Assembly (NCBI RefSeq): GCF_010499455.1
Contig: NZ_JAAGOH010000019.1
Location: 1-64,000 of the forward strand
DNA length: 64,000 bases
Direction of reading: 5' to 3'
Origin: Ideonella livida
GTDB lineage: Bacteria; Pseudomonadota; Gammaproteobacteria; Burkholderiales; Burkholderiaceae_C
This document shows positions 48,757-54,645 of the stretch, piece by piece (positions within the stretch are counted from its first letter, which is position 1; every line of letters starts with the position of its first letter). The notes beneath the pieces were generated by a model. That model was not told where the DNA came from. It searched no databases and saw only the letters and a program-made list of their open reading frames with translations. A program made the translations under genes and the position numbers.

Positions 48757-49680
48757 TCAGGCCGCTTCCAGCGCCTTGCGCATCTTCTTGAGCGCGGCCA
48801 CCTCGATCTGGCGGATGCGCTCGGCGCTGACGCCGTACTCGGCGGCCAGCTCATGCAGCGTCATGCCGCCGGAGCTGTCGTCGTTGACCTTGAGCCAGCG
48901 CTCCTCGACGATGCGGCGGCTGCGGGCATCGAGCACCTCCAGCGCCTGCGTGATGCCGTCGCCCGACTGGTGGTCGCGCGCACGGGCCTCCAGCACCCGG
49001 GTGGGCTCGTGGCGGTCGTCGGCCAGATAGGCGATGGGGGCGTAGCTCTCCTCGCCGTCCTCGGTCTGCGGCTCCAGGGCCACATCGCCGCCGGACAGGC
49101 GGGTCTCCATCTCGACCACCTCTTCAGGCTTGACGTTGAGTTGGCGCGCCACGACCTCCACCTCGTCGGGCGTCAGGGTGTTGCGGAAGGTCTCGTGGTC
49201 GGCGGCCTGGTCCTTCAGGCCCTGCTTCATGGAGCGCAGGTTGAAGAACAACTTGCGCTGCGCCTTGGTGGTGGCGACTTTGACCATGCGCCAGTTGCGC
49301 AGGATGTAGTCGTGGATCTCGGCCTTGATCCAGTGCATGGCGTAGCTCACCAGTCGCACACCCTGGTCGGGATCGAAGCGCTTGACCGCCTTCATCAAGC
49401 CGACGTTGCCTTCCTGGATCAGGTCGCCTTGCGGCAGGCCATAGCCCAGGTACTGGCGGGAGATCGAGACGACCAGGCGCAGGTGCGAGAGCACCAGCTT
49501 GCCGGCGGCCTGCACGTCGCCCTGCTGCTGCAGCCGGCGGGCCAGCTCGCCTTCCTCTTCGGCGCTGAGCATCGGCATCCGGTTGACGGCGCTGATGTAG
49601 GCGTCCAGGTTGCCGATGGAGGGCACCAGGCCCCAGGGGTCACGGACAGCCAGGGCGGAGGGGGCGGGAGTGGTGTTCAT
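48757..49680 (-). CDS. rpoH: RNA polymerase heat-shock sigma factor (sigma 32)
   Basis: A 307-residue sigma factor. Start at [12 protein letters not shown] (49680). Region 2 is complete ([60 protein letters not shown]). It is followed by the RpoH box, recognisable as QRKLFFNLR, which marks sigma 32 proteins. The C-terminal region 4 helix-turn-helix is [19 protein letters not shown]. It directs polymerase to heat-shock promoters. Upstream lies a perfect CIRCE element overlapping the probable promoter, so HrcA repression is expected, a link between the two heat-shock circuits. Confidence 0.96.
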
Positions 49681-49718
49681 GCGGGTTTTGAGGCCTCGAC
49701 GAGGATCGGGTTCCGTTG

Positions 49719-49748
49719 ATATTAGCACTCGGTCGGGAGGAGTGCTAA
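49719..49748 (-). promoter_or_regulatory. CIRCE operator over the rpoH promoter
   Basis: TTAGCACTC (49722-49730), nine spacer bases, GAGTGCTAA (49740-49748): a perfect CIRCE, the HrcA binding site. On the minus strand TTAGCA can act as -35 and TAATAT (49719-49724) as -10, 18 bases apart, with the rpoH ATG about 40 bases downstream. Operator and promoter coincide, so HrcA would block initiation directly. Confidence 0.9.
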
Positions 49749-49812
49749 GCCCGGAAATGCGCCACCTTGCACGCCCTGTGGCCAAAACGGCAGGCCTGAC
49801 CCCGCCGCCCGT

Positions 49813-50445
49813 TCAGGGGCTGAGGCGGATCTCCACCCGCCGGTTGGCGTCGGCGGCCGGCTCGGTGTCGGCCAGCGGCTTGTCCGGGCCGAAGCCGTAG
49901 GCGGCCAGGCGGTCCGCGGCCACGCCAGCCTTGATCAGGTGCCGGCGCACCGCGATGGCGCGGGCGCACGAGAGCTGCAGGTTGCGGTCCCGGGGGCCGG
50001 TGTCGCTGGTGTGGCCGGCGATCACGAATCGCTTGCCGTCCAGGTCAGGGCTGCGCAGGGCCTGGGCCAGCTTGTCCAACAGCGCCCGGCTGGCCGGGCT
50101 GACCGCGTCGGAGTCGTTGGCAAAGCCGATGGCCAGGTCCACATGCGGGGCCTCGGGCGCATAGGCCACCACTTCCAGGTTGCGGGTGCCGGCGCTGCGG
50201 GTGCCGGGGGCGGCTTCGCTGGCCCCGGCACCGGGGCACAGCCCGTCCTGGGTGGGCGGCTGGGTGCGGGTGAAGCTGCGGGCCAAGGGGTTGGCCGGGG
50301 GGGTGGCGGGGGCCAGGGCGGCGCGCAGGTCCTGCACGCTGGGGTTTTGCAGCAGCCCGGCCGCTGGGCAGGTGGTGCTGAGCACCAGCAGGGCCAGGGG
50401 GGCCAGGAGGGTGGGCATGGGGGGGCGGAAGCGGACTTTGCGCAT
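49813..50445 (-). CDS. OmpA-family C-terminal domain protein, exported
   Basis: A 210-residue protein with a signal peptide (LLAPLALLVLSTTCPAAG). After a Pro/Ala-rich segment the OmpA peptidoglycan-binding fold covers about residues 95-208. It shows AIGFANDSDAVSPASRALLDKL, VIAGHTSDTGPRDRNLQLSCAR and RRHLIKAGVAADRL, ending NRRVEIRLSP. The domain normally binds diaminopimelate in the cell wall. There is no beta barrel. It is the last gene of a three-gene unit with the serpin and the caspase-like protease and may tether that system to peptidoglycan; this is inference. Confidence 0.85.
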   Translation of the reverse strand: MRKVRFRPPMPTLLAPLALLVLSTTCPAAGLLQNPSVQDLRAALAPATPPANPLARSFTRTQPPTQDGLCPGAGASEAAPGTRSAGTRNLEVVAYAPEAPHVDLAIGFANDSDAVSPASRALLDKLAQALRSPDLDGKRFVIAGHTSDTGPRDRNLQLSCARAIAVRRHLIKAGVAADRLAAYGFGPDKPLADTEPAADANRRVEIRLSP

Positions 50446-50490
50446 GGACGGGCCTCGACAAAGGGGGAGAGGGCGGTGTGCCGTGGCGGA

Positions 50491-51807
50491 TCAGTTTCGC
50501 AGCGGCTCGGCCAGCTGTCCCATGAACAGCGGCACCCCACTGGCACGGTGCATCACCGCAAAGAAGAAGGGCCGGTCGGCGGCGCAGGCAGGGGCGTCGG
50601 AGACCGGTGCGAAGGACTTGAGACCCACCACCGCGGCGGTGGCGGCGCTGGCCTCGGCCCCGGTTTCGTCCAGGGCGATGGCGGCAGACTGGAAGACGTT
50701 CTCCAGCCGCAAGCCGCGATGGCCTTGCCGCAGCAGCGGGCTGAAGTCGGCCCGGTCGCTGAAGGGGGTCTTCAGGCCCAGGGCCTGCAGCGTGTCCTTC
50801 AGGGGGCGGCTGCGCGGTGCCAGGTCCAGCCGGGGCAGGCTGAGCTGGCAGCGCTTGGGCTGCAGGGCTCCACGCCAGCGTGCCAGGTCGGTGCCGTGCA
50901 GGGTCTGCACAAAGTCACCCAGCCGCTGGCCGGCGGGCGGCAGGGCCAGCAGCAGGCTGTAGGCCGGGGCATCGCGGCCTTCCTGTGTGGCGAAGGGCAG
51001 CTCCATCACCGTCACGCCCTGGACGCTGGCCTGCAGCACCTCCCGCTCGTCCTGCATCTGCCGGGCCTGCACCACGGCACCATCGTCGCCGGTGAAGGGG
51101 CGCAGCTGGGTGCCGGTGACCGGAAAGGGCTGGGCCCAGGCGCGCTTGAAGTGCAGGGCATTGGTCAGCACCAGCCGGGTGCTGCCCTGCAGGCTGCCTT
51201 CGGGCAGCAGCTCCGCGATGCGTTGCTGGGTCTGCTCGCCGACCCAGCGGTTGATCTGGCTGCGTGCCAGCTCGGCGTCAAAGGCCGGGATGACACCGGC
51301 CGGAGTGCCCTGCCGGGCCTGCACGCGCTGGGCATAGCTGGGCTGCAGGGCCTTGACCAGGCTGTCGTCCAGCCACAGGCGGTTGGCCTGGTGCAGGCCC
51401 TCGTCACGGGCCAGGCGTTCGGCCAGGTCGGGCAAGCGCTGCTGGTACAGGCGCTGACCGGCGCTCACCCGGCCGTCGCCCATCAGGCGGTTGAGTTCAT
51501 GGGCCGAGGCGCCGGCCGTGCCCGCCTGCAGCAGCCCCAGGGCCTGGGCCAGCGACAGCGAGGAGACGACGCTGTTGCCGACCGGGGACGCGGCGCTGGC
51601 GGGACGATCGGCCCGCAGCAGCTTGAGCCCGAGCTCGCCCAGGGCGGCGGCGGTGGCTGCATCGTTGGCGGCGGGGCTGGGGCGCGGTGCCCCTGAGGCC
51701 GCAGCGGCCCCGCCCAGCAGGGCCGCTGCCATGGCGGCGGTCGGGAGGCGGCGCAGGGCGGTGCGCAGGCAGGCGCCGGCGCGGCCGAAGGCGGGGGGGC
51801 GTTGCAT
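50491..51807 (-). CDS. Serpin (serine/cysteine protease inhibitor), exported
   Basis: A 438-residue serpin with an N-terminal signal-like stretch (AAMAAALLGGAAAASGAP). Serpin landmarks are SPVGNSVVSSLSLAQALGLL, LTNALHFKRAWAQPF and the C-terminal RPFFFAVMHRASGVPLFMGQ. The hinge of the reactive loop, ETGAEASAATAAVV (residues 381-394), has the small residues needed for loop insertion, so it should be inhibitory. Counting from the conserved Gly383 as P15, the scissile bond would be Lys397-Ser398 (in GLKSFA). Its start shares one base with the stop of the caspase-like gene, so the two are translationally coupled. A basic P1 fits trypsin-like or metacaspase targets. Confidence 0.92.
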   Translation of the reverse strand: MQRPPAFGRAGACLRTALRRLPTAAMAAALLGGAAAASGAPRPSPAANDAATAAALGELGLKLLRADRPASAASPVGNSVVSSLSLAQALGLLQAGTAGASAHELNRLMGDGRVSAGQRLYQQRLPDLAERLARDEGLHQANRLWLDDSLVKALQPSYAQRVQARQGTPAGVIPAFDAELARSQINRWVGEQTQQRIAELLPEGSLQGSTRLVLTNALHFKRAWAQPFPVTGTQLRPFTGDDGAVVQARQMQDEREVLQASVQGVTVMELPFATQEGRDAPAYSLLLALPPAGQRLGDFVQTLHGTDLARWRGALQPKRCQLSLPRLDLAPRSRPLKDTLQALGLKTPFSDRADFSPLLRQGHRGLRLENVFQSAAIALDETGAEASAATAAVVGLKSFAPVSDAPACAADRPFFFAVMHRASGVPLFMGQLAEPLRN

Positions 51808-53318
51808 CAGCGCTCCTGCACGGCCAGCACATTGCTGGCGCCGTAGATCGAGGGGTTGCCCGCGCCTTCCACGGCCTCCACCACCAGGGTGCGGGCGGTG
51901 GCGGTGTTGGCCTTGGCGCTGGGGAAGGTCTGGCTCAGGTCCAGGGCCTTGCCGATGTTGCGCTTGGTGGGCGAGACGATGGCCAGCACATGGCTGGTGC
52001 CGGCGGGGCCGGCGGCGCGCACGCGCCACTGCGGGCGGGGCAGGCGCGTGGTGCCGGCGGCGATCTGGTTGTCCTCGTCCAGCTTGTTGGGGAAGAGCAG
52101 GTCGAAGGTCTTGCCGTCGCTGCCCACATGCAGCACGTACAGGTAGCCCGGCTTGTTGCTGGTGACCTGGAAGTCCAGGAAATCCTTCTGGATGGTCAGC
52201 GGCGAGTTGCCGCTCAGGCTCACCTGGATGGATGGGCTGCCGCCTGCCCGCAGGTCCTGCAGCGTGCTCACCGGGTTGACCGGCTCCTCCGGTGGGGTCG
52301 GGGCTTCGGCCTGCGGCGCCGGGGGCGGGGCGGGCGCGGGGGTGGGGGCCGGGGTGGGGGCCGGGGTGGGCGCGGCGGCTTGCGGGGCCGGGGCCGCCGG
52401 CGGGCTGCTGGGCGCGGCGGTGGTGAAGGCCAGTGGCAGCTTGCCGTTGCCCACCAGCGTGATGGTCTGCGGCCGTCCGCCGCGTTGGTTGATCAGGCGC
52501 TGGGCGCAGCGCTGCATTTCCTCGCCGTTGACGGCGCCGGAGCGGTCGGCGTCCGCGCCCCCGCTCAGGCAGGCGGCCCAGGCCAGGGTGGCGATGCTGC
52601 CCTGGGAGGTGGCCCCGGCCACCTCGGTGGCCGAGGCGGCGGCCAGGTAGACCACGCGCGGGCCCTCGGCCTTGGCCCCGACCAGCTCCAGGCCGCGGGC
52701 CATCTTGTTGACGGCGTTGCCGCACTGGTGGCTGTCACCGGCGGCCGATCCATCCTTGACCGAGCCGGGGAAGAACTTGGGCACCACGCCGCCCACGTTG
52801 ATGGCCCGGGTGGCGGCGCCGCCGGAGAAGCAGGAGTCGTTGAGGAAGACCACCTGGCCGGCCTTGCTGCCCAGGGTGTCGAGGTCCTGCTCCAGCCGGG
52901 CATCCTCGTACAGGGTGGGCTCGTAGGTCACCATGCCCTCGGTGCACTTGCCTCCACCGCTGCCGCTGCGGTTGCCGATCTGGGCGCCGTGGCCGGAGTA
53001 GTAGAGGAAGACGTTGTCGCCCGGGGCGATGCGCCGGGTCAGCTCGCCCAGGGCGGCGCTGACGTTGCCCTTGGTGAAGGCGGCGTTGCTCAGCTCGCGG
53101 ATGTTGCCGTCGGGCACCCCCATGGCCCGGGCAATCTTGCGCGCCATGGCCGCGTCCAGGTCGATGCCCGGCAGGTTGTTGCGCGGGTTGGAGTACTCGC
53201 CGATCCACATGATCAGCGCGTGGTTGGCGGCCTGGGCGGGCAGGGCGCCCAAGCCGGCGGCGGCCAGGGCGGAGGCGGCGGCCAGATGGCGCAGGACAGG
53301 GCGGAAGGCAACAGGCAT
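51807..53318 (-). CDS. Caspase-fold protease (bacterial metacaspase/orthocaspase) with EF-hand loop and DUF4384
   Basis: A 503-residue exported protein. The signal peptide ends at LPAQAA (residue 31). The peptidase C14 domain covers about 32-295, with the catalytic dyad His110 (YYSGHGAQ) and Cys163 (NDSCFSGG); DSC is the metacaspase form of the motif. A perfect EF-hand calcium loop, DADRSGAVNGEE, sits at 256-267 near the end of this domain. A Pro/Ala linker (about 302-345) leads to a DUF4384 domain (QKDFLDFQVTSNKPGYLYVL, LLFPNKLDEDNQIAAG). GAGGAG precedes the ATG. It heads the operon with serpin and OmpA-like genes. Metacaspases cut after Arg or Lys and often need calcium, which fits both the loop and the serpin. 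Confidence 0.9.
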   Translation of the reverse strand: MPVAFRPVLRHLAAASALAAAGLGALPAQAANHALIMWIGEYSNPRNNLPGIDLDAAMARKIARAMGVPDGNIRELSNAAFTKGNVSAALGELTRRIAPGDNVFLYYSGHGAQIGNRSGSGGGKCTEGMVTYEPTLYEDARLEQDLDTLGSKAGQVVFLNDSCFSGGAATRAINVGGVVPKFFPGSVKDGSAAGDSHQCGNAVNKMARGLELVGAKAEGPRVVYLAAASATEVAGATSQGSIATLAWAACLSGGADADRSGAVNGEEMQRCAQRLINQRGGRPQTITLVGNGKLPLAFTTAAPSSPPAAPAPQAAAPTPAPTPAPTPAPAPPPAPQAEAPTPPEEPVNPVSTLQDLRAGGSPSIQVSLSGNSPLTIQKDFLDFQVTSNKPGYLYVLHVGSDGKTFDLLFPNKLDEDNQIAAGTTRLPRPQWRVRAAGPAGTSHVLAIVSPTKRNIGKALDLSQTFPSAKANTATARTLVVEAVEGAGNPSIYGASNVLAVQER

Positions 53319-53524
53319 GGACAGGCTCCTCGGTCAGGCCGGCGGCACGTGGGCCGCGGTTCAACAGGTCTCTTGCCGGTGTACGCAGATTGCGCGGCGC
53401 TCACGGCTCATCCGCGGGACCGCGCACCCGGCGGGGTGGGCGGCACCCATGTTGGGGCGCAGGGGGGGAGCTGTCCAGCCCGCCGGACAAACCTGCCTGT
53501 GCTTGGCGGGGCGTGGGGCTGGAG

Positions 53525-53545
53525 GGGGCGGCCTGGGGCCGCCCC
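53525..53545 (-). terminator. Hairpin after ychF
   Basis: A perfect 9-bp stem, ggggcggcc (53525-53533) and ggccgcccc (53537-53545), lies five bases past the ychF stop. There is no T run, so it is a GC hairpin of the kind that may need Rho or act as an RNA end stabiliser. Confidence 0.5.
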
Positions 53546-53550
53546 GGAGA

Positions 53551-54645
53551 TCACACGTTGAACAGGAAGTTCATCACGTCGCCGTCCTTGACGACGTATT
53601 CCTTGCCTTCGGCGCGCATCTTGCCGGCATCCTTGGCGCCTTGTTCGCCACCGAACTTGATGAAGTCGTCGAAGGCGATGGTCTGGGCGCGGATGAAGCC
53701 GCGTTCGAAGTCGCCGTGGATCACGCCGGCGGCCTGCGGGGCGGTGTCACCGATGCGGATGGTCCAGGCGCGCACTTCCTTGACCCCGGCGGTGAAGTAG
53801 GTCTGCAGGCCCAGCAGCTTGAAGCCGGCGCGGATCAGGCGGTTCAGGCCCGGCTCGTCCTGGCCCATCTCGGCCAGGAACAGGGCCTTGTCCTCGTCCT
53901 CCATCTCGGCCAGCTCGGACTCGGTCTTGGCGCAGATGGCCACCACCTCGCCCTTCTGGGCGGCGGCGTATTCCTTCAGGCGGTCCAGGAAGGGGTTGTT
54001 CTCGAAGCCGGTCTCCGAGACGTTGCCCACAAACATCGCCGGCTTGGCGGTGATCAGGCACAGCGGCTTGAGGATGACCAGCTCCTCCTTGGTGAAGTCG
54101 ATCGAGCGCACCGGCTTGGCCTGGTCCAGGGCGGCCTGGCACTTCTCCAGCACCTTGACCAGGGCGGCGGCGTCCTTGTCGTTGCCCGAGCGGGCGGCCT
54201 TGGTGTAGCGCTGCAGGCTTTTCTCGACGGTGCCCAGGTCGGCCAGGCACAGCTCGGTCTGGATGACCTCGATGTCGGCGATGGGGTCGACCTTGCCGGC
54301 CACGTGGATGACGTTGTCGTCCTCGAAGCAGCGCACCACGTTGACGATGGCGTCCGTCTCGCGGATGTGGCTGAGGAACTGGTTGCCCAGGCCTTCGCCC
54401 TTGGAGGCACCGGCCACCAGGCCGGCGATGTCGACGAACTCGACGATGGCCGGCACGATGCGCTCGGGCTGCACGACCTTGGCCAGGTCGGCCAGGCGGG
54501 GATCGGGCACTTCCACCACGCCCACATTGGGCTCGATGGTGCAGAAGGGGTAGTTCTCGGCCGCGATGCCGGCCTTGGTCAGGGCATTGAACAGGGTGGA
54601 CTTGCCGACGTTGGGCAGGCCGACGATGCCGCACTTGAGGCTCAT
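53551..54645 (-). CDS. ychF: Redox-regulated Obg-like ATPase YchF
   Basis: A 364-residue P-loop ATPase of the OLA1/YchF group. It has [18 protein letters not shown] at the N-terminus, [19 protein letters not shown] (G3 and switch region) and a coiled-coil hairpin domain (residues about 130-200). The TGS domain lies at the C-terminus ([18 protein letters not shown] to MNFLFNV). It binds ATP rather than GTP and associates with ribosomes. Length and ends match the family. It is monocistronic and divergent from the UbiH-family gene. Confidence 0.96.

What the first reader, a model, noticed from the sequence alone, without database searches (positions are those of the whole stretch)
49813..53318. 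Exported caspase-serpin-OmpA operon
Three adjacent minus-strand genes with signal peptides encode a caspase-fold protease, a serpin and a peptidoglycan-binding OmpA domain. The protease and inhibitor genes share one base (TGATG), so they should be made in step. A metacaspase encoded with a dedicated serpin and a wall anchor would be a self-contained, inhibitor-controlled proteolytic device in the periplasm. I know of plant serpins that block metacaspases, but not of such a bacterial operon. That the serpin inhibits this caspase is inference.
Basis: partly seen in the sequence, partly recalled or inferred. Interest (0 to 1): 0.82.

Follow-up and report, generated by a model that had tools for sequence, protein, structure and literature searches.

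The report
Exported bacterial caspase–serpin gene cassette
Three neighbouring bacterial genes encode a probably exported caspase-like protease, a serpin that looks suited to trap such a protease, and a cell-envelope protein; similar gene sets recur in distantly related bacteria, offering a testable home-grown job for bacterial serpins, whose role is largely unexplained.

Summary
In detail: caspase (51807-53318, -), serpin (50491-51807, -, one-base TGATG overlap), OmpA-family gene (49813-50445, -). It is not unique to this strain. A caspase gene lies beside the serpin gene in 11 of 26 serpin-bearing genomes of the phylum found here (7 of 16 genera); in draws made before I searched around a linked genome, 4 of 11, the window included. 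Linked serpins fall in three places on the serpin tree. A congener has the caspase-serpin pair beside other genes. In the class of G837, and on Rhizobium plasmids (R. johnstonii 3841 pRL11), the set also holds a trypsin. The caspase keeps its catalytic and acidic pocket residues and the serpin's predicted P1 is Lys, a fit. One relative lacks the block and has ychF next to rpoH.

Best reading: an exported Lys/Arg-specific protease made in step with its own suicide inhibitor. Inhibition is inferred; where a trypsin is present it is an equally good target. "Wall anchor" is weak: the OmpA domain lacks the usual peptidoglycan-binding Asp. No structure could be predicted. No report of such a cassette was seen in the library's listings.

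The parts
51807..53318 (-). Caspase gene, 503 aa: signal-peptide-like start, Peptidase_C14 match (residues 32-182), Pro-rich linker, DUF4384 (380-451)
   Evidence: relatives P0005 in G404 (62%) and L040 6754-8163 in G431 (43%)
52989..52991 (-). Predicted catalytic His110 codon (YYSGHG)
   Evidence: alignments
52830..52832 (-). Predicted catalytic Cys163 codon (NDSCFSGG); D161 and D55 are the predicted acidic S1 residues
   Evidence: alignments; the role of D55 and D161 is recalled from metacaspase structures
50491..51807 (-). Serpin gene, 438 aa with signal-peptide-like start; its ATG overlaps the caspase stop by one base
50578..50667 (-). Reactive-centre loop region (residues 381-410; hinge ETGAEASAATAA, predicted scissile bond K397-S398)
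   Evidence: P1 position inferred by counting from the hinge
49813..50445 (-). OmpA-family gene, 210 aa, signal-peptide-like start, C-terminal OmpA domain (108-202); GHTSD in place of GHTD
   Evidence: 45% relative in the G431 caspase cluster
49722..49748 (.). Inverted repeat TTAGCACTC-N9-GAGTGCTAA (CIRCE type) before the rpoH-like gene; downstream edge of the inserted block
   Evidence: the name CIRCE is recalled

Best explanation
The block encodes an exported proteolytic unit with a built-in brake. The caspase is sent to the periplasm (or beyond) and, by its acidic pocket, should cut after Lys or Arg. The serpin is translated in step with it and exported too; its loop offers a Lys-Ser bond as bait, and on cleavage it would trap the enzyme covalently. 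The OmpA protein and the DUF4384 domain are probably envelope or scaffold parts of the same module. Shown: gene content, order, overlap, intact catalytic and hinge motifs, recurrence. Inferred: export, specificity, inhibition, trigger and purpose.
For: Recurrence: 11 of 26 serpin-bearing genomes, 7 of 16 genera, have a caspase gene beside the serpin (serpin searches; neighbours). Linked serpins sit in three places on a 47-row ML tree, at least 3 label changes forced by supported branches (the four linked genomes were fetched later and are not in it). In the congener G404 the pair stands beside other genes. K or R at the predicted bond (strict count P1 or P2) in 11 of 11 linked serpins. Catalytic dyad and acidic S1 residues intact in the window, G404 and G431 caspases. 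Trypsin-family matches in G000 and G404 (4 each) start at profile position 15 or later and score E 1e-16 to 1e-19, against 1-220 and about 1e-55 for most cluster trypsins; they look like HtrA-type proteases (inferred). An OmpA-domain gene lies in or next to the cluster in 9 of 11 linked genomes. Empty site in G402: ychF stop, 46 bases, CIRCE repeat, rpoH. Precedent: serpins inhibit metacaspases AtMC9, AtMC1 and CrMCA-I (PMC10609998, passages); metacaspases and the orthocaspase MaOC1 prefer Arg/Lys (PMC8283722, PMC7475262, passages).
Against: No biochemical evidence. In 8 of 11 linked genomes a trypsin gene lies directly upstream of the serpin, so the shared basic P1 may track trypsin, not caspase. 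Basic residues at this place are not unique to linked serpins: the five unlinked g517 genomes have R-S, G869/G1005 R-T, G1353 R-A, G1414 R-V; by genus 7 of 7 linked versus about 4 of 9 unlinked (by eye; the G1558 loops were not read), which is weak. 15 of 26 serpin genomes show no caspase beside the serpin (in three of them, G1334, G1266, G1292, one lies about 8 kb away). 0 of 27 loci of other or unclassified phyla do (some are short contigs; one, L058, has a caspase about 7.5 kb away on the other strand). The G404 pair lies only about 16 kb from that genome's rpoH, so its place may share descent with the window's rather than show an independent move. The caspase relative in G431 stands in a cluster without a serpin match.
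Confidence: 0.58

Rival explanations
1. The serpin guards against trypsin-like proteases, not the caspase: in the enlarged clusters its partner is the trypsin(-caspase) protein, and in the window lineage it keeps that role against another own or foreign trypsin-like enzyme.
For: Trypsin gene directly upstream of the serpin in 8 of 8 linked genomes of the class of G837; all 8 keep the TAAHC and KD[AST]C/RDTC-QGDSGG motifs, i.e. a trypsin-type pocket; a basic P1 suits trypsin.
Against: Window, G404 and G795 pair the serpin with a caspase and no trypsin was seen beside it (the G795 contig is only 3.5 kb). G000 and G404 have only HtrA-like trypsin-family matches. The window serpin lies outside the well-supported clade of the enlarged clusters' serpins, so a relict of that cluster is not indicated.
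Confidence: 0.2
2. Both proteins are an outward-facing set: the caspase digests or attacks foreign proteins and the serpin independently blocks proteases of competitors, predators or hosts (as miropin and siropins do); there is no enzyme-inhibitor pairing within the producer.
For: The characterised bacterial serpins described in PMC8233489 section 12 act on host proteases. Export-like signals vary (Sec-like, a lipobox in G1591, a twin-Arg start in G1283, by eye).
Against: Protease stop and serpin start overlap in 5 of 11 linked genomes (start codons chosen by eye), and the same protease class is paired again and again.
Confidence: 0.15
3. Chance or hitch-hiking neighbours with no functional tie.
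For: Only 2 of 16 species in the genus have the pair; 15 of 26 serpin genomes lack the linkage.
Against: With an assumed 10 caspases in 4000 genes and six neighbour places, 7 of 16 genera linked has probability about 1.7e-9, and 3 of 16 about 1.6e-3 (assumes independence, and two of the searches were aimed at relatives of a linked genome). Three tree positions.
Confidence: 0.04
4. The serpin is non-inhibitory, for example a chaperone or export partner of the caspase.
For: P14 is Ala, not the usual Thr/Ser; the strict register of the scissile bond varies by one residue among linked serpins.
Against: Small hinge residues P12-P9 and Thr P8 are kept; the alignment with 18 other bacterial serpins has 30 invariant columns, all shared by the window protein.
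Confidence: 0.03

Closest known systems
Plant and algal serpin-metacaspase pairs (AtSerpin1-AtMC9/AtMC1, CrSERPIN-CrMCA-I)
   Same: A serpin inhibiting a caspase-fold protease, AtMC9 as suicide inhibitor by the cited paper's title (PMC10609998, passages)
   Different: Eukaryotic; here bacterial, adjacent genes, export signals, DUF4384 and OmpA parts
Orthocaspases (e.g. MaOC1) and caspase-DUF4384 proteins
   Same: C14 domain with SGHG/DSC motifs; DUF4384 is a listed accessory domain of cyanobacterial orthocaspases (PMC8283722, passages)
   Different: The passages read mention no serpin partner; the window protein has a signal-peptide-like start
Bacterial protease-cognate inhibitor operons (staphopain-staphostatin, KLIKK protease-potempin; recalled, not read)
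   Same: Exported or secreted protease encoded next to its inhibitor
   Different: Inhibitors there are not serpins and the proteases are not caspase-fold (recalled)
Bacterial serpins miropin, siropins, Bifidobacterium serpins
   Same: Serpin family, inhibitory loop
   Different: Targets named in PMC8233489 section 12 are host proteases; no own-protease gene partner is mentioned there
Rhizobium plasmid cluster DUF4384/OmpA - caspase - trypsin-caspase-DUF4384 - serpin - kinase (R. binae p3; R. johnstonii 3841 pRL11 RL_RS32735 to RL_RS32715)
   Same: Caspase, serpin, OmpA domain and DUF4384 with signal-peptide-like N-termini on four of the five proteins (Pfam scan on R. binae only)
   Different: Adds a trypsin and a Ser/Thr kinase; annotated gene by gene

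Membership tests
Peptidase family C14 (caspase fold) | C14 domain above curated cut-off | tested here: met
   35.6 bits versus 21.4, residues 32-182; profile positions 2-131 of 233 only
Peptidase family C14 (caspase fold) | His/Cys catalytic dyad | tested here: met
   YYSGHG and NDSCFSGG aligned
Metacaspase/orthocaspase type (Arg/Lys at P1) | Acidic S1 residues | tested here: met
   D55 and D161 conserved in sequence; role of these positions recalled
Metacaspase/orthocaspase type (Arg/Lys at P1) | Cleavage after Arg/Lys in vitro | not testable with these tools
   needs purified enzyme
Metacaspase/orthocaspase type (Arg/Lys at P1) | Caspase-fold structure; presence or absence of p10 | not tested
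   structure machine busy at all 12 attempts
Serpin (I4) | Serpin domain over nearly the full profile | tested here: met
   225.9 bits, profile 14-370 of 370
Inhibitory serpin | Hinge with small residues P12-P9 and Thr P8 | tested here: met
   ETGAEASAATAA
Inhibitory serpin | SDS-stable covalent complex with target | not testable with these tools
   bench assay
OmpA-like peptidoglycan-binding domain | OmpA domain above cut-off | tested here: met
   70.3 bits versus 27.2
OmpA-like peptidoglycan-binding domain | Conserved Asp (GHTD) contacting diaminopimelate | tested here: not met
   GHTSD aligned to GHTDS; the Arg of LSxxRA is kept; roles of the residues recalled. Filed only as OmpA-family
Known anti-phage caspase systems (PADLOC) | Partner genes of a listed system | tested here: inconclusive
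   Caspase model 44.4 bits; serpin no match; OmpA protein matches only ZorB (MotB) models through its OmpA domain; other neighbours not scanned

The most novel reading that the evidence does not exclude
Bacteria run exported, serpin-regulated proteolytic modules of their own: caspase, pseudo-caspase and trypsin units joined by DUF4384 and OmpA domains and held in check by a dedicated serpin. The native job of a class of proteobacterial serpins would then be to restrain the cell's own envelope caspases and trypsins, a bacterial counterpart of animal serpin-controlled cascades. Paired live and dead caspases in some clusters hint at pseudo-enzyme regulation as well.
Probability: 0.45. Interest if true: 0.85.

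Novelty: new variant of a known kind. Interest (0 to 1): 0.72.

Why it matters
[quoted passage not shown] A recurrent gene set that pairs a serpin with a protease of matching predicted specificity gives a direct, cheap test of a native target, here and in a laboratory strain (R. johnstonii 3841). It would also place bacterial caspases in the envelope under a covalent inhibitor.

Tried and rejected
Viral contigs scanned with the caspase alignment: 62 stretches matched a pattern, none confirmed. Plasmids searched with the window serpin and caspase: 17 and 8 records, all under 60% identity and none covering 80% of the query. The three plasmid serpin loci that I opened (Novosphingobium, Psychrobacter, Porphyrobacter) show no caspase by my profile. 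The genome-contig scan with the two-row serpin alignment returned 27 loci and not the known congener, so it is not a census. Promoter/terminator scan of 49600-53700 found none, uninformative for so GC-rich a genome. Considered and rejected: 'OmpA is a chance neighbour' (OmpA-domain genes in or beside 9 of 11 clusters, and a 45% relative in the G431 caspase cluster); 'restricted to this strain'; 'basic P1 is diagnostic of linkage' (also in some unlinked serpins).

Limits and dropped rows: caspase neighbours were sought with a profile built from nine caspase sequences, not with Pfam, except for the linked clusters scanned. From the tree I left out duplicate loci and L042, L071, L072, L086 (fragments or split frames). 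In one search L071, L072 and L086 gave no usable loop, and the window's own loop was read. The G558-type gap: the two G1558 serpins did not match my serpin queries, so their loops were not read. G791 and G831 serpins are fragments. G795's contig is 3.5 kb and its caspase ORF runs off the contig start, so its signal peptide and an OmpA gene there cannot be judged. In L170 the free caspase had no Pfam match at 1e-3 and in L172 only a marginal one; they were recognised by similarity to the G837 caspase.
Full report
OBSERVATION. Pfam gives Peptidase_C14 plus DUF4384 for the first, Serpin for the second, OmpA for the third, all above cut-off. The caspase stop and serpin start share one base; the OmpA gene starts 45 bases after the serpin stop. 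All three N-termini look like signal peptides by eye. The genome has a single serpin gene and three caspase genes.

IS IT A UNIT? In G402, a congener without a serpin, ychF is followed after 46 bases by the CIRCE-type repeat and rpoH. In the window the three genes stand between ychF and CIRCE-rpoH, with no other gene that I recognise. Of 11 congeners whose rpoH flank was read, ychF was found there in 2: G402 and G409. In G409 the gap holds another gene (fumarase-like by eye). So the block looks inserted as one piece, on the evidence of one clean empty site.

IS THE NEIGHBOURHOOD CONSERVED? In the genus, serpins occur in 2 of 16 species. The other one, G404, has a 62% caspase followed 16 bases later by a 47% serpin, beside different genes and without a match to the window OmpA protein. 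It lies only about 16 kb from the rpoH of G404, on the same strand, so an independent insertion is not proven. Serpins are in 4 of 399 genomes of the family draw, 2 of 399 of the order draw and 7 of 398 of the phylum draw. Of these 11 different serpin genomes (window included) 4 have a caspase directly upstream: G000 (the window), G404, G795 and G837. Because G837 showed an enlarged cluster I then searched its order (9 of 199) and class (9 of 385), and the genus of G795 (1 of 5). In all, 26 different serpin genomes were seen. Eleven are linked: G000, G404, G795, G837, G1253, G1220, G1283, G1591, G1507, G1405, G1593. Fifteen are not: G258, G791, G868, G831, G869, G932, G1005, G1201, G1235, G1266, G1292, G1334, G1353, G1414, G1558. 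By genus 7 of 16. In three of the unlinked ones (G1334, G1266, G1292) a caspase lies about 8 kb away. The later draws were aimed at relatives of a linked genome, so 4 of 11, or 3 of 10 without the window, is the fairer rate; it is still well above what a random neighbour would give (rough model). Loci of other or unclassified phyla: 0 of 27 adjacent.

THE ENLARGED FORM. In G837, G1507, G1405 and G1593 the order is OmpA gene (with DUF4384 in G837), caspase, trypsin-caspase-DUF4384 fusion, serpin. G1591 has DUF4384, OmpA, the fusion and the serpin. G1283 has OmpA, caspase, trypsin-DUF4384, serpin and a TPR-caspase. G1253 and G1220 have trypsin-DUF4384, serpin and a TPR-caspase, with an OmpA gene on the opposite strand next door. 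The serpin start overlaps the preceding stop by four bases in G1591, G1507, G1405 and G1593, by one base in the window; elsewhere the gap is 10 to 153 bases. Named examples are on Rhizobium plasmids. R. binae p3, Rhizobium sp. N621, R. johnstonii 3841 pRL11 and R. hidalgonense show DUF4384, caspase, trypsin-like protease, serpin and kinase genes, 4 of 5 annotated regions opened. The fifth (R. leguminosarum Ta6k) lists trypsin and kinase with an unannotated serpin match in two pieces between them; a sixth record has no annotation. The R. binae proteins carry DUF4384+OmpA, C14, trypsin+C14+DUF4384, serpin and kinase domains. Its serpin matches 101 plasmid records, 88 of them Rhizobium, many of them strains of a few species.

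TREE. On 47 serpins the linked ones fall in three places: window + G404, G795, and the clade of the enlarged clusters; supported branches force at least three changes of the label (which may be gains or losses). That last clade also holds five unlinked serpins of genus g517. Many deep branches are weak, and the four linked genomes are not in the tree.

SPECIFICITY. The window caspase keeps His110, Cys163, D55 and D161. The serpin loop reads ETGAEASAATAAVVGLK-SFAP; counting from the hinge, P1 is K397. G404 (SVK-S) and G1591 (ATR-A) also have the basic residue at strict P1. G795 (IAK-S), G837 (TER-S), G1253/G1220 (VTR-S), G1283 (ASR-S) and G1507/G1405/G1593 (GTR-A) have it one place earlier. So all 11 linked serpins have K/R at the likely bond; unlinked proteobacterial ones are mixed. 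The eight cluster trypsins keep a trypsin-type pocket motif, so they too should cut after K/R. In G1507, G1405 and G1593 the free caspase has lost His and Cys while the fused one keeps them; in G837 and two Rhizobium clusters the fused one has SGQG while the free one is intact.

OmpA AND DUF4384. A 45% relative of the window OmpA protein sits in a cluster of about 17 kb in G431 (L040 and L159) together with seven caspase genes, one of them the P0001 relative, an ECF sigma factor gene, a second OmpA gene and DUF4384 proteins, without a serpin match. This ties the OmpA gene to caspase-DUF4384 systems. The motif that normally contacts peptidoglycan is altered, so anchoring is not established.

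MECHANISM. Most likely the serpin is a co-made suicide inhibitor of the exported caspase. Steps shown: genes, order, overlap, motifs, recurrence. Steps inferred: export, Lys/Arg specificity, covalent trapping, threshold behaviour, role of OmpA. The main rival is that trypsin is the serpin's true partner in the enlarged form. The three pairs without a trypsin beside them (window, G404, G795), and the finding of only HtrA-like trypsin-family matches in G000 and G404 (their type is inferred), favour the caspase for the window.

LITERATURE. Searches of the held open-access library listed no paper whose title or abstract start describes a bacterial caspase or metacaspase encoded with a serpin; for 29, 33, 67 and 78 only part of the hits was listed (20 of 32, 15 of 29, 25 of 54, 10 of 77). 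I read one section and passages of PMC8233489 and passages of PMC8283722, PMC7475262, PMC2853523, PMC4933709 and PMC10609998. Most subscription papers and preprints are not held, so a report may exist.

CHECK. The main confidence did not need to change.

Noticed in passing
window 49722-49748: CIRCE-type repeat directly upstream of an rpoH-like sigma factor gene (48757-49680, -), also present before rpoH in G402 (L150); suggests HrcA-type control of the heat-shock sigma factor.
   Followed up: partly
L040 6754-19319 and L159 1409-8171 (G431): About 17-kb cluster with seven caspase genes, two fused to TctC and one to SBP_bac_3 solute-binding domains, two with DUF4384, plus an ECF sigma factor and two OmpA genes: could be ligand-sensing envelope caspases.
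   Followed up: partly
L084, L170, L171, L172, L176, L178: Live and dead caspase domains occur side by side in the same cluster, the dead one being either the free protein or the trypsin-fused one.
   Followed up: partly
L178 2820-12565 (R. johnstonii 3841 pRL11): Five-gene DUF4384, caspase, trypsin-like, serpin, kinase cluster in a laboratory strain, annotated only gene by gene.
   Followed up: partly
L103 5875-7011, L104 5500-6879: Plasmids of Novosphingobium and Psychrobacter carry a lone serpin gene near transfer or replication genes.
   Followed up: no
L179 6001-7112: Serpin match in R. leguminosarum Ta6k comes in two pieces and is not annotated, possibly a decayed copy.
   Followed up: no
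L102 and L169 serpin N-termini: Serpins of linked clusters seem to use different export signals: twin-arginine-like in G1283, lipobox-like in G1591, Sec-like in several others (by eye).
   Followed up: no
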